NCBI RefSeq assembly: GCF_024022995.1
Contig: NZ_CP099582.1
Coordinates: 682,001 to 746,000, forward strand
DNA: 64,000 nt
Direction of reading: 5' to 3'
Source of the DNA: Thermococcus aggregans
GTDB lineage: Archaea; Methanobacteriota_B; Thermococci; Thermococcales; Thermococcaceae
Below are positions 45,450-49,415 of the stretch, one piece after another. A model generated the notes under the pieces. That model saw only the letters and a list, made by a program, of their open reading frames with translations, was not told the origin of the DNA and made no database searches. How positions within the stretch are numbered: the first letter of the stretch is position 1; every line of letters begins with the position of its first letter. A program made the position numbers and the translations under genes.

Positions 45450-46769
45450 CTACTTGCCTGCTATCCTCACGTTCTCAAATGCCATTGCCGGAACAACCAT
45501 GCTTCCTCCGAAGGGCAACACTTTTTGCTCCTTGCTTACCTCGTAGAGGTTTGGCAGCAGCTCGTAAATGTTGCCGCTCATCATGAAAACTGTGGAGCCC
45601 TTTATTTCGCCGTTCTCTATCAAGAACGCTGGGTTTGCCACAACTGCAAAGTTTCCGTTGTCTGGGTTGCTTGAGTGAGCCCCTTGGAAGCCGTCCACGA
45701 GGTAGCCGTGCTCTATCTCCCCTATAATCTCATCAAGACTTCTTTTGCCGTTTTCGATTACAACGTTGTGGAAGCCTATGTTTATTCCACCCGTGGACAA
45801 GTTTCTCTTTCCGTTCCCGGTACTTTCAACTCCGTGAACCTTTGCCCAGTAGTTGTCCCAGATGAAGCCTTTAAAGACACCTTTCTCGATTATCACGTTT
45901 TTCCTGGTTGGCACTCCTTCATCGTCCGCTATCACCGGGTTTATGCTGAGCTCATGGAATGGGTCATCGTATATCGTGAGGAGGTCGTTTGAGACGTTTT
46001 CTCCTATTTTGTTGGCTAACGGGGTCGTTCCCTTGACGAGTCTTTCTCCGCTGAACGCTGGGAAGAGAGCATAGGATAGTAGGCTCGAAAGTGCCCATGG
46101 TTCTATAACTACTTTCCCTTCTCCCGTTTTGCTTTTCTCAACCTTAAACGCCCACTTAACTTTCTGCAGAGCATTTTTAACAACGGTTTCCACATCAAGG
46201 TCGAGGGAAAGCTTTGCATCAAACTCGAAAATACCCGGAGTTACTCTGCCCTCTTTCATTCCAACAAGCTCAATGTAGAAGAAAGCGCCTCCACTCTCTT
46301 GAGACACGTTAACTCCGTGAGAATTCATTATCAAGCTTTCTCCCCATTCTGCTCCTCCTTCGCCACCTGCTACTACTATTCCGTCTTCCTTTGCAAGCTC
46401 TATGCCTCTTCTCGCAAGCTCTACAAAGTAGTCTGGGGAAACCTCTTTGAGTTCTTTATCAACTTTTCTCGGCTCCCTGTATTTTCCTGGTTCTGGGAGT
46501 GAAACCCACTTCTCATCGGGTTTGTTGAGTTTCGCCATCTTGTATGCCCTTTCTATGGCTTCTTTGATTTTTTCTTTGTCTGCAGTATCAACTATCGAAA
46601 CCCCGAGCCTTTTGTCCTTAATGCCCCTGATAACGGTAACAACTCTCTCCCTTAAAGCTGAAGTGGAAACCTCGTTGAGCTCAATGTTAACGCTTGCACT
46701 TCTGCTCTTGTAAACGGCAATCTCAAGCTCATCGAAGAACTTCCCTCCAAAACGAATCAGCTCTTCCAT
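45450..46769 (-). CDS. tldE: TldE/PmbA family protein
   Basis: A 439-residue TldD/TldE-fold protein lacking the HExxxH zinc site, so the non-catalytic TldE (PmbA) partner. It shows SRSASVNIELNEVSTSALRERVVTVIRG and GGINIGFHNVVIENG near the C-terminal half. TldD/TldE heterodimers are proteases for unfolded peptides. ATG 46769 is preceded by AAAGGAGGTGAT. That ribosome site is also the end of the tnpB frame, so tldE translation is coupled to tnpB rather than to tldD as would be usual. Confidence 0.9.
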   Translation of the reverse strand: MEELIRFGGKFFDELEIAVYKSRSASVNIELNEVSTSALRERVVTVIRGIKDKRLGVSIVDTADKEKIKEAIERAYKMAKLNKPDEKWVSLPEPGKYREPRKVDKELKEVSPDYFVELARRGIELAKEDGIVVAGGEGGAEWGESLIMNSHGVNVSQESGGAFFYIELVGMKEGRVTPGIFEFDAKLSLDLDVETVVKNALQKVKWAFKVEKSKTGEGKVVIEPWALSSLLSYALFPAFSGERLVKGTTPLANKIGENVSNDLLTIYDDPFHELSINPVIADDEGVPTRKNVIIEKGVFKGFIWDNYWAKVHGVESTGNGKRNLSTGGINIGFHNVVIENGKRSLDEIIGEIEHGYLVDGFQGAHSSNPDNGNFAVVANPAFLIENGEIKGSTVFMMSGNIYELLPNLYEVSKEQKVLPFGGSMVVPAMAFENVRIAGK

Positions 46770-46774
46770 CTTTA

Positions 46775-47872
46775 TCACCTCCTTTGCGAGCTGGAAGCCT
46801 CTAAGGGGAGGAAAGCCCGCTTTGCAATATTTCTTGCTGCATTCAAATCCCTATCCAGTTGAAAACCACATTTTGGGCATTTAAACACCCTCTCATTTTT
46901 AAAGCCCTTAACATAATAGCCACAATTTGAGCACATCTTTGAGGTTCCTCTTGGGCTTACGAAGATGACAGGTACGCCGTGCAACTTTGCCTTGTAGATT
47001 ATCTTAGTTATGAGGTCGGCATAGCTCCAACGGTGCAAAATTTTCCTTAGTTGCTTTGGTCTTTTTTGCCTCTTTAGACCTTTCAGCTTCTCCAGAACAA
47101 TCGCTCTGTTTAACTGCTTTGCCTTTAGAACAAGCTCCTTAGCAATTTTGTGGTTTAGGTCGTTAACAAACTTTTTGTCTTTGTGATTTGTCTTAGCATA
47201 AATGCCAAACTTCTTCATAAGCCTTTGTTGCCTTCTTGCAGTCAGTTTTTCCAAATGCTCTTTGTGTTTTATCAATGCATCTCCTTGAACCCTCATAACT
47301 TCTCTTCCCTTCTCGTCGCTTGCCACTAATAAATTGTAGTATCCCAAGTCCACACCAATTGCTCCAATAGGCTTTACTGGCTCTTTCTCTGGAACATTAA
47401 TTGAGAGAAATGCGTACCAGTCCTTGCCGATGCGTTTTATTATTACCCTACCGTGCTTGTATTGAAGATACTTCTTGAATTTCTTTGGAACGTATAAAGG
47501 CAAGTAAACCCTCTTGCCCATCAGCGGGACGACCAGCCCGTTATTTTCTATCTTGACATCAATGCCCTTGAAATAAATAACATCGGAGTGGAACTCTGGG
47601 AAGTTCCCCCCGTTCTTAAGCCAAGAGCGGTGGATTTCGATTGCTAAGTTCATAGCATCCTGAACGACATTGCTATGTAGTTGGGGGTATTTGTCCCTAA
47701 TTCTCCTATAAGCGAAGCGGTGTAGATTGCCCCTATTAGGCTTCTCCCCGAGTTGTGCAATTGCACTAAGCCAATCATTAACACAGGCTCTGAATGCCCC
47801 TATAGATTGTTCTAACATCCATTCTTTGTTCCTTGTTAGTGGTCTCATTTTCATCTTCAGCGTGAGCTTCAT
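46775..47872 (-). mobile_element. tnpB: tnpB (IS200/IS605-type RNA-guided nuclease gene), intact, no tnpA
   Basis: A TnpB protein of 365 residues (368 from GTG 47881). RuvC residues are seen in IGVDLGYYNLLVA (Asp), AIVLEKLKGL (Glu) and QLDRDLNAARNI (Asp). The zinc ribbon is CSNCG...CPKCG before the last Asp. No tnpA gene is nearby. The promoter on the minus strand (CGAAAAGTATTTAAAAAC, 47902-47919) predicts a near-leaderless mRNA. Its stop TGA (46775-46777) lies inside the tldE ribosome site. The last residues, LPLEASSSQRR, are not followed by a recognisable right end or omega-RNA; a right-end-like sequence lies instead on the opposite strand beyond its start. Confidence 0.9.
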
Positions 47873-47933
47873 CTTACGCACTCATTGTATTTTTGCGTAA
47901 AGTTTTTAAATACTTTTCGCCTAACCTTATAGT

Positions 47934-48047
47934 GAGGGTGCCTCTGGCCGTGCCCGATGACACCAACCTGCCCGATGCCCCGCAGGCGACTGCGGTTAAG
48001 GGCGTTCCCTGTGGGAACCCTCGCCCTTCAGGGCGGGGAGGAGGTCA
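47934..48047 (+). mobile_element. TnpB right-end / omega-RNA-like remnant on the plus strand
   Basis: Read on the plus strand, this stretch encodes VRVPLAVPDDTNLPDAPQ, then GVPCGNPRPSGRGGG, the type of proline/glycine-rich tail that overlaps the omega-RNA at the end of IS605-type tnpB genes, with no TnpB body in front. Hairpins are GTTCCC-TGT-GGGAAC (48004-48018) and CGCCCT-TC-AGGGCG (48022-48035), followed by GGGAGGAGGTCA, where the tldD sequence begins. A TATA-like CCTTATAGTG (47925-47934) lies upstream. It is a remnant of a second element, or a displaced end of the neighbouring one. On the minus strand its terminal TGA is the tldD stop. Confidence 0.6.
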
Positions 48048-49415
48048 GCCTATTATTATTCCTCCATCAAAGCGCATGTGTGGACCACCAGAGCTGACAA
48101 AAGCGGTCTGTCCCTTTCCACATCTTCCCATTTCGAGACCAAAATCATTTCCTACAGCAGTTATCTTCTTTAACGCCTCAATCGCGATTCCGCTTATCGA
48201 GGTGTCCCTTATGGGCTTCGTTATTTCACCGTTTTCTATCATGTAGCCCTCTTGGACTCCTACCTGGAAGGCTGAGTTGAGCTGCGCCTGACCTCCTCTG
48301 AAGTCAACCACGTAGTATCCAAACTTAATGTCCTCTATCATCTCCTCGAACTTCCAGTCCCCGGGCTCAAAGATCGTGTTGCGCATCCTTATTATCGGCG
48401 GATAGGTGTAATTTTCAGCCCTTGCATGGCCATTTGGCTCCATGCTCCACTTGTGGGCGTATTCACGGTTGAGCATTATCTCCTTCAAGATACCGTTTTC
48501 AATGATGTGAATATCCTTAACAGGAACACCCTCGTCATCGTATTTGTCATTTCCAAATCCACCTTCAACGATGCGCTCGCTCATGGTGACGTATTCGGGA
48601 GCAATTTGCTTGCCAATTAAGTCCTTAAACGGCGAGTTTATTGTTAAGTCTGCTTCCGCAAGATGTCCAAGGGCTTCGTGAGCTATAAGGCCAACAATTA
48701 TCGGACCCGCCACTATTGGGAACTCTCCTCTCTTTGGTGCAACTCCCTGAAGCTGGGCGTGAACTTTTCTTATGACCCTTTTGGCAACTTCTTCATTTGG
48801 TTCTTTCTCCTTGAAGAGCTCCCAGCCATAATCCACTGCTCCAACTTCATCTCTCGCAGCTGCAAGCTTCTCTCCCTCTTTACCCGTTGCCCAAACGTAT
48901 TGCCATACGTAGTTCAAATCCCATTTTATCTTCGTGCCCTCGTTTGTTATGAGGATTTTTTCACCGCTTGCGTCTTCATAGCGAAGCCAAGTTGATTTTA
49001 TGGCTTTGTCTTCTTTGAGAAGAGCTTCCAGATCCATTAGCCTCTCAACCTTTTCCTCTATTGGAACATCTCTGGGCTTTATTTTCATCTTGCTCTTCAC
49101 GAAGTCTTGATGGGCTTTTATCTCCGCAAGCTGAATCTTTTCTTTTTTGGCTTTTGCAGTTGCCTTCGCAAGTTTGTATGCACTCTCTATGGCTTTTTCA
49201 AGGTTCTCAAGCCTGCTTGTTGATGCAAATCCCCAAGCTCCATCCGCTAGAACCCTGATTGCAACTCCCATTTGCCCTTTGCCAGCAAAAGTTGTAAAAG
49301 TCCCGTCTTTGAGCTCCAAAGTGTTCTTGCTAATGTTCTCATAGCGAATCTCTATGTACTCTGCTTTAAATTTCTCAAGAGCCCAGTTAAGAGCACTTTC
49401 TAATTTCTCCTCCAT
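48045..49415 (-). CDS. tldD: TldD family metalloprotease
   Basis: A 456-residue TldD protein. The zinc-binding HEALGHLAEAD (HExxxH, near residue 250) is intact, and the end shows CGKGQTAFVSSGGPHMRFDGGIIIG. With TldE it cleaves short or unfolded peptides. The stop codon TGA is the outermost three bases of the neighbouring right-end-like element, so the natural 3' end may have been altered by an insertion. ATG 49415 follows GGTGATAC. The operon tldD-tldE is interrupted by about 1.3 kb of mobile DNA. Confidence 0.93.
   Translation of the reverse strand: MEEKLESALNWALEKFKAEYIEIRYENISKNTLELKDGTFTTFAGKGQMGVAIRVLADGAWGFASTSRLENLEKAIESAYKLAKATAKAKKEKIQLAEIKAHQDFVKSKMKIKPRDVPIEEKVERLMDLEALLKEDKAIKSTWLRYEDASGEKILITNEGTKIKWDLNYVWQYVWATGKEGEKLAAARDEVGAVDYGWELFKEKEPNEEVAKRVIRKVHAQLQGVAPKRGEFPIVAGPIIVGLIAHEALGHLAEADLTINSPFKDLIGKQIAPEYVTMSERIVEGGFGNDKYDDEGVPVKDIHIIENGILKEIMLNREYAHKWSMEPNGHARAENYTYPPIIRMRNTIFEPGDWKFEEMIEDIKFGYYVVDFRGGQAQLNSAFQVGVQEGYMIENGEITKPIRDTSISGIAIEALKKITAVGNDFGLEMGRCGKGQTAFVSSGGPHMRFDGGIIIG

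What the first reader, a model, noticed from the sequence alone, without database searches (positions are those of the whole stretch)
46775..48047. tnpB inside the tldD-tldE operon next to an inverted, body-less TnpB right end
Seen: tnpB on the minus strand has all RuvC and zinc residues but no recognisable right end after its stop. Beyond its start, on the plus strand, lies what looks like the last ~37 codons of a TnpB plus hairpins and GGGAGGAGGTCA, ending where tldD begins. A TATA-like box lies ahead of it, back to back with the tnpB promoter. Either one element lost its body and another inserted head to head, or tnpB was inverted relative to its right end. If transcribed, the plus-strand RNA would be an omega-RNA made divergently from its nuclease, with a guide taken from tldD. 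Separation of TnpB and guide RNA would be unusual.
Basis: partly seen in the sequence, partly recalled or inferred. Interest (0 to 1): 0.72.

Follow-up and report, generated by a model that had tools for sequence, protein, structure and literature searches.

The report
Mobile element with inverted TnpB gene
A small archaeal jumping element carries its RNA-guided DNA-cutting enzyme back to front, so that the enzyme and its guide RNA are read away from each other from what looks like one shared promoter, and it inserts at ribosome-binding sites without breaking the genes on either side.

Summary
The plus-strand 'right end' (47934-48048) is Rfam HgcC RNA (122 bits). In the same genome HgcC/sot0042-type RNAs sit in the normal omega-RNA position, just after ordinary TnpB genes on the same strand. 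All eight informative relatives of this tnpB (85-89% identical in Thermococcaceae; 50-66% in a more distant Thermococcaceae genome, Archaeoglobaceae, Methanophagales and one other bin) have HgcC divergent, immediately upstream of tnpB. One unit (46779-48048) thus moved with tnpB inverted relative to its ends. Two empty sites in relatives fix the boundaries: insertion after TCAC, the complement of the GTGA in a Shine-Dalgarno motif, with no duplication. The element's GGAG rebuilds the downstream Shine-Dalgarno, its TCAG gives tldD its stop, and the host TCA gives TnpB its stop. The predicted guide matches the empty tldD-tldE junction of four relatives perfectly, directly after TCAC. TnpB is under strong purifying selection (dN/dS 0.04-0.09), yet no Y1 transposase was found in these genomes. 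The supposed 37 TnpB codons on the plus strand are not conserved. Transcription and nuclease activity are inferred, not shown. Verdict: a new variant of TnpB-omega-RNA elements.

The parts
46779..48048 (+). Whole mobile element, given in its left-end to right-end polarity
   Evidence: Homologous block ends here in copies at unrelated sites; two empty sites in relatives join exactly at TCAC|flank
46775..46778 (+). Host target/TAM tetranucleotide TCAC (GTGA of the tldE Shine-Dalgarno motif on the other strand); also contains the TnpB stop codon TGA
   Evidence: TCAC at 31 of 39 distinct left-end sites; empty site
46779..46820 (+). Left end: CTCCTTTGCGAGCTGGAAGCC plus hairpin; on the minus strand it supplies AAAGGAG to the tldE ribosome-binding site
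   Evidence: Similar to the left end of the canonical five-copy IS605 element in G076; pattern hits in 17 of 94 relatives, none for the reversed control
46775..47881 (-). tnpB, inverted relative to the element ends, 368 aa, intact RuvC and zinc ribbon
   Evidence: dN/dS 0.036-0.093 against relatives
47903..47912 (.). TTTTTAAATA box flanked by AAAG and CTTTT: putative bidirectional archaeal promoter (leaderless tnpB one way, HgcC the other)
   Evidence: An AT-rich box at this place in all nine copies; spacing read from the sequence; promoter activity inferred
47934..48048 (+). HgcC RNA = predicted omega-RNA scaffold and right end, ending GGGGAGGAGGTCAG
   Evidence: RF00062, 122.1 bits; covariation not reached by any of 500 shuffles
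48045..48048 (+). Right-end TCAG; on the minus strand it supplies the stop codon TGA of tldD
   Evidence: Comparison with empty sites GGAATAATAATAGG|GTGA
48049..48068 (+). Predicted guide, antisense to the 3' end of tldD
   Evidence: Perfect match, directly after TCAC, to the empty tldD-tldE junction in G080, G078, G082 and G083
48045..49415 (-). tldD (upstream gene of the interrupted operon)
   Evidence: Pfam PmbA_TldD domains
45450..46769 (-). tldE/pmbA (downstream gene); likely true start is the ATG at 46769
   Evidence: Pfam; relatives' starts

Best explanation
46779-48048 is a TnpB-bearing derivative of an IS200/IS605-type element in which tnpB lies inverted between the left end and the omega-RNA/right end (HgcC). 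A shared bidirectional promoter would make a leaderless tnpB mRNA one way and HgcC the other, with HgcC reading through the right end into flanking DNA for its guide. TnpB would bind HgcC and cut the empty chromosomal site (TCAC + guide match), so that the element is kept or copied back by repair. The element inserts after TCAC, the complement of GTGA, very often in a Shine-Dalgarno motif. Its ends rebuild the downstream Shine-Dalgarno (AAAGGAG|GTGA) and supply an upstream stop (CTGA), and the inverted tnpB becomes a co-directional operon gene that uses the target's TGA as its stop. Shown by comparison: anatomy, polarity, boundaries, target motif, guide match, conservation, selection. Inferred: promoter activity, TnpB-HgcC complex, cleavage, homing.
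For: Rfam HgcC hit. The same RNA type lies 3' of ordinary TnpBs on the same strand in this genome, with sot0042 at the same places. Divergent HgcC upstream of tnpB in all nine members of this TnpB group and in none of the ordinary TnpB loci scanned. Block ends coincide at unrelated sites. Exact empty sites at tldD-tldE and pfkB. Guide matches behind TCAC. TCAC at 31/39 sites, and 17/39 sites within 7-11 nt of an ATG of an ORF against 32/320 background, p = 8e-7. dN/dS 0.04-0.09. RNA covariation.
Against: No expression or cleavage data for this locus. No Y1 TnpA was found in this genome or in any of the Thermococcaceae genomes with the intact inverted form, so present mobility is unproven. Copies are old (dS about 0.6-2.1). 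Single origin of the group is supported but not firmly (58% of bootstrap trees). At least four of the nine copies come from metagenome bins.
Confidence: 0.78

Rival explanations
1. Local accident: an older element lost its body and a second one inserted head to head, or one copy was inverted here by chance.
For: It would give the arrangement at this one site.
Against: The same arrangement, with similar spacing and the same ends, recurs at eight other unrelated sites in other genomes.
Confidence: 0.02
2. HgcC here is no longer a guide for TnpB: it is an antisense or other regulatory RNA, or a relic kept only as the transposon end, and TnpB does something else.
For: HgcC RNAs occur without TnpB at many places, five in this genome, and tnpB-less forms are common. 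P. abyssi transposase-related ncRNAs are expressed from repeat loci and some bind L7Ae (PMC3124441).
Against: The invariant core and covarying helices persist in all nine TnpB-linked copies, the nuclease residues are invariant, and the flank behind the right end still matches the empty site behind TCAC.
Confidence: 0.14
3. The omega-RNA is made from the 3' end of tnpB itself, as in ordinary elements, with the hairpin at 46779-46820 as scaffold and the tldE start as guide.
For: There is a hairpin at the tnpB 3' end, and the HgcC model gives weak partial hits there in relatives, but on the HgcC strand.
Against: The conserved target tetranucleotide lies on this side and the variable (guide) flank on the other. 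The hairpin matches a left end, and full-length HgcC is absent there.
Confidence: 0.03
4. The unit is domesticated: an RNA-guided regulator or defence nuclease kept for the host, not a selfish homing element.
For: Strong purifying selection and no transposase; insertions do not disturb the operons.
Against: Insertion sites differ between genomes with no shared neighbourhood, RuvC residues are intact, and the guide matches the element's own empty site.
Confidence: 0.1

Closest known systems
IS200/IS605-family TnpB-omega-RNA (OMEGA) elements such as ISDra2
   Same: RuvC/zinc-ribbon nuclease, structured RNA ending at the right end, guide from the flank, target motif beside the left end, subterminal hairpins, no target duplication
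   Different: tnpB is inverted, so the guide RNA is divergent and cannot be cut from the tnpB mRNA; target TCAC rather than the TTAC of the canonical relative in G076; no TnpA found
HgcC RNA family (RF00062) and archaeal sot/IS1341 sense-overlapping RNAs (sot0042, RF02656)
   Same: Same RNA family; in this genome both models hit the same kind of place after ordinary TnpBs; HgcC RNAs are transcribed in T. kodakarensis (PMC4247193)
   Different: Here HgcC is on the opposite strand, upstream of tnpB. The T. kodakarensis paper notes that the P. furiosus HgcC is antisense to a transposase gene, possibly an earlier sighting of this layout, untested here
Transposase-related ncRNAs of Pyrococcus abyssi (sRk48, sRk52, sRkB, sRkC; PMC3124441)
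   Same: RNAs related to orphan OrfB right ends, expressed from repeat loci
   Different: Not linked there to an inverted tnpB, a target motif or a guide
tnpB-less mini-elements with the same ends in Thermococcaceae (this work)
   Same: Same left end, TCAC target and TCAG right end; about 175 bp with HgcC, or about 50 bp with one hairpin
   Different: They lack tnpB

Membership tests
TnpB RNA-guided nuclease | RuvC D-E-D and CxxC...CxxC zinc ribbon intact | tested here: met
   Invariant D178, E264, D345, C317, C320, C335, C338; Pfam and PDB profile hits to TnpB/Cas12f
TnpB RNA-guided nuclease | RNA-guided DNA cleavage | not testable with these tools
   Needs biochemistry
Canonical TnpB-omega-RNA locus | omega-RNA on the tnpB strand, overlapping or following its 3' end | tested here: not met
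   No RNA hit after the stop; HgcC lies divergently upstream
Canonical TnpB-omega-RNA locus | Guide is the flank behind the right end, and matches the empty site behind the left-end target motif | tested here: met
   tldD-tldE and pfkB empty sites
IS200/IS605 element | Insertion 3' of a fixed tetranucleotide, no target duplication, subterminal hairpins at both ends | tested here: met
   TCAC at 31/39 sites, empty sites, ends like the canonical element
IS200/IS605 element | Y1 transposase TnpA in the element | tested here: not met
   No PF01797 match in G000, G085, G011, G089 or G025; TnpB-only elements are common, so it would need TnpA in trans
HgcC RNA (RF00062) | Score above the gathering threshold | tested here: met
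   122.1 against 50 bits
IS607 element | Serine recombinase gene and IS607-type ends | tested here: not met
   tnpB is the only large gene within 46779-48048; ends differ from those of the 394-aa TnpB group in G076, whose full-length elements begin with an IS607-like reading frame

The most novel reading that the evidence does not exclude
With no transposase left, the element persists and spreads by TnpB-guided homing alone: TnpB cuts empty Shine-Dalgarno junctions in related strains and repair copies the element in. The same TnpB may also take guides from dispersed tnpB-less HgcC mini-elements in trans, a scattered guide array run by one nuclease whose RNA supply is no longer tied to its mRNA.
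Probability: 0.25. Interest if true: 0.85.

Novelty: new variant of a known kind. Interest (0 to 1): 0.7.

Why it matters
Ordinary TnpB elements encode the guide RNA at the 3' end of the nuclease gene, and TnpB can cut its guide from its own mRNA (PMC10278001, title and abstract seen). Here the two are uncoupled in a stable, widely shared layout, as in CRISPR systems where nuclease and RNA are separate units. The insertion rule (join a Shine-Dalgarno motif, rebuild it, supply a stop for the upstream neighbour) explains how such an element can live inside operons at little cost. It gives the old orphan RNA family HgcC a likely role and a ready target-cleavage test.

Tried and rejected
Plus-strand TnpB C-terminus: frame not conserved. 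Head-to-head pair or local inversion: same layout at nine sites. Right end after tnpB: it is a left end. Minimum-free-energy folding of HgcC alone is only modestly better than shuffles (z -1.86), so the structure rests on covariation. An AlphaFold model of TnpB was of middling confidence (pLDDT 65.6) and was not used. IMG/VR and plasmids gave only about 26-31% identical TnpBs over full-length matches, not members of this group. A phylum-wide search of 115 genomes found no further members. Literature searches found no report of a divergent TnpB guide RNA, but the library is partial.

Full report
What is there. The minus-strand tnpB (46775-47881) is intact: Pfam Cas12f1-like_TNB and OrfB_IS605, profile matches to solved TnpB and Cas12f chains, invariant RuvC and zinc residues. 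The plus-strand stretch beyond its start is not a TnpB remnant but the RNA family HgcC, RF00062, 122.1 bits at 47934-48061. The reading frame that suggested a TnpB C-terminus is not conserved among relatives.

HgcC is an omega-RNA family. In the window's own genome HgcC-type hits fall just after ordinary TnpB genes on the same strand, at 477981 and 1398868. The sot0042 model (sense-overlapping transcript of IS1341-type genes) hits the same kind of place. In G076 a five-copy element with near-identical copies shows the usual layout: TTAC target, left end with hairpin, TnpA, tnpB, and a right end ...CCCTCGCCCTTCAGGGCGGGGAGGAGGTCAG, nearly the same as the end of our HgcC.

The inverted layout is inherited. 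A search of 94 Thermococcaceae genomes gave tnpB relatives in G085 (89%), G011 (87%), G089 (two copies, 88% and 85%) and G025 (52%). HgcC searches put HgcC on the opposite strand just upstream of tnpB in every one. Three more, from an Archaeoglobaceae bin, a Methanophagales bin and a bin labelled 'bacterium', have the same divergent HgcC. No ordinary TnpB locus scanned has it. In a tree the nine cluster (two changes of the label on the tree against a shuffled mean of 8.3), though single origin gets only 58% of bootstrap trees. The next TnpBs are only about 31% identical.

Ends and polarity. Copies at unrelated sites share a block whose ends coincide with HgcC's TCAG on one side and CTCCTTTGCG... 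after the tnpB stop on the other. The latter resembles the canonical left end. A pattern for it hits 17 of 94 genomes, with no hits for the reversed control. Many hits are tnpB-less forms: about 175 bp with HgcC, or about 50 bp with one hairpin, most ending TCAG. The four bases before the left end are TCAC in 31 of 39 distinct sites, while the flank after HgcC varies. So left end = tnpB 3' side, right end = HgcC, and tnpB is inverted.

Empty sites. Relatives without the element read GGAATAATAATAGGGTGATAAAGATG at the tldD-tldE junction. Here it reads GGAATAATAATAGG | element | GTGATAAAGATG: no bases lost or duplicated. A second case, pfkB in G011 against G007, gives the same result. The predicted 24-nt guide matches the empty tldD-tldE junction perfectly in G080, G078, G082 and G083, and with 1-3 mismatches in most other close relatives, directly behind TCAC.

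Fit to ribosome-binding sites. TCAC is the complement of GTGA, core of the archaeal Shine-Dalgarno motif. 17 of 39 sites lie 7-11 nt before an ATG of an ORF, against 32 of 320 TCAC sites in the window (p = 8e-7); the five canonical TTAC copies show none. The element's end AAAGGAG joins GTGA to form a long Shine-Dalgarno motif. Its other end gives tldD the stop CTGA in place of GTGA, leaving the TldD protein unchanged. TnpB's own stop is the host's TGA. In the Archaeoglobaceae copy the proteasome alpha gene likewise ends at the element's TGA and the next gene starts right after the element. The background includes true ribosome-binding sites, so the contrast is conservative; a stricter TCACC background is 23 of 93. 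Selection after insertion, rather than target choice, could also produce the enrichment.

Expression. Between tnpB and HgcC lies TTTTTAAATA (47903-47912) with AAAG on one side and CTTTT on the other, about 26 nt from the HgcC start and from the tnpB start codon. An AT-rich box sits there in all nine copies. A bidirectional promoter with a leaderless tnpB mRNA is inferred from archaeal promoter spacing (own knowledge). HgcC RNAs are made in T. kodakarensis, and the P. furiosus one is reported as antisense to a transposase gene (PMC4247193).

Function. HgcC helices covary (17 double changes; 0 of 500 shuffles reach it). TnpB dN/dS is 0.036-0.093. Both suggest a working RNA-protein pair. No Y1 transposase was found in any of the Thermococcaceae genomes with the intact inverted form, so movement now needs a transposase from elsewhere, or TnpB-driven homing. 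Cleavage and homing are inferred from the TnpB family.

Comparison. It works like an IS200/IS605 TnpB-omega-RNA element but fails one defining feature of the canonical layout, a same-strand 3' omega-RNA, and lacks TnpA. Verdict: new variant of a known kind.

Noticed in passing
L009, L011, L012, L014, L015 (own genome at 929026, 1592739, 444512, 1660660, 393413): Five HgcC-like RNAs with no TnpB within 1.5 kb: solo right ends that might share a TnpB in trans.
   Followed up: partly
L160, L161, L165, L167, L173, L137, L153, L158: About 50-bp elements made of one hairpin, TCAC|CTCCTTTG..GGAGGAGGTCAG, often directly before start codons.
   Followed up: partly
L176:1084-1215: A second HgcC without tnpB in the Archaeoglobaceae bin, ending just before the next gene's start.
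   Followed up: no
L079 (G008:C1 about 444871-445710): Decayed, interrupted copy of the same tnpB with the left end still present.
   Followed up: no
L091-L094, L098, L099 (G076): The 394-aa TnpB group of Thermococcaceae has ends GGGCTG.../...GGCAGAACGG; elements L091-L094 begin with an IS607-like reading frame.
   Followed up: no
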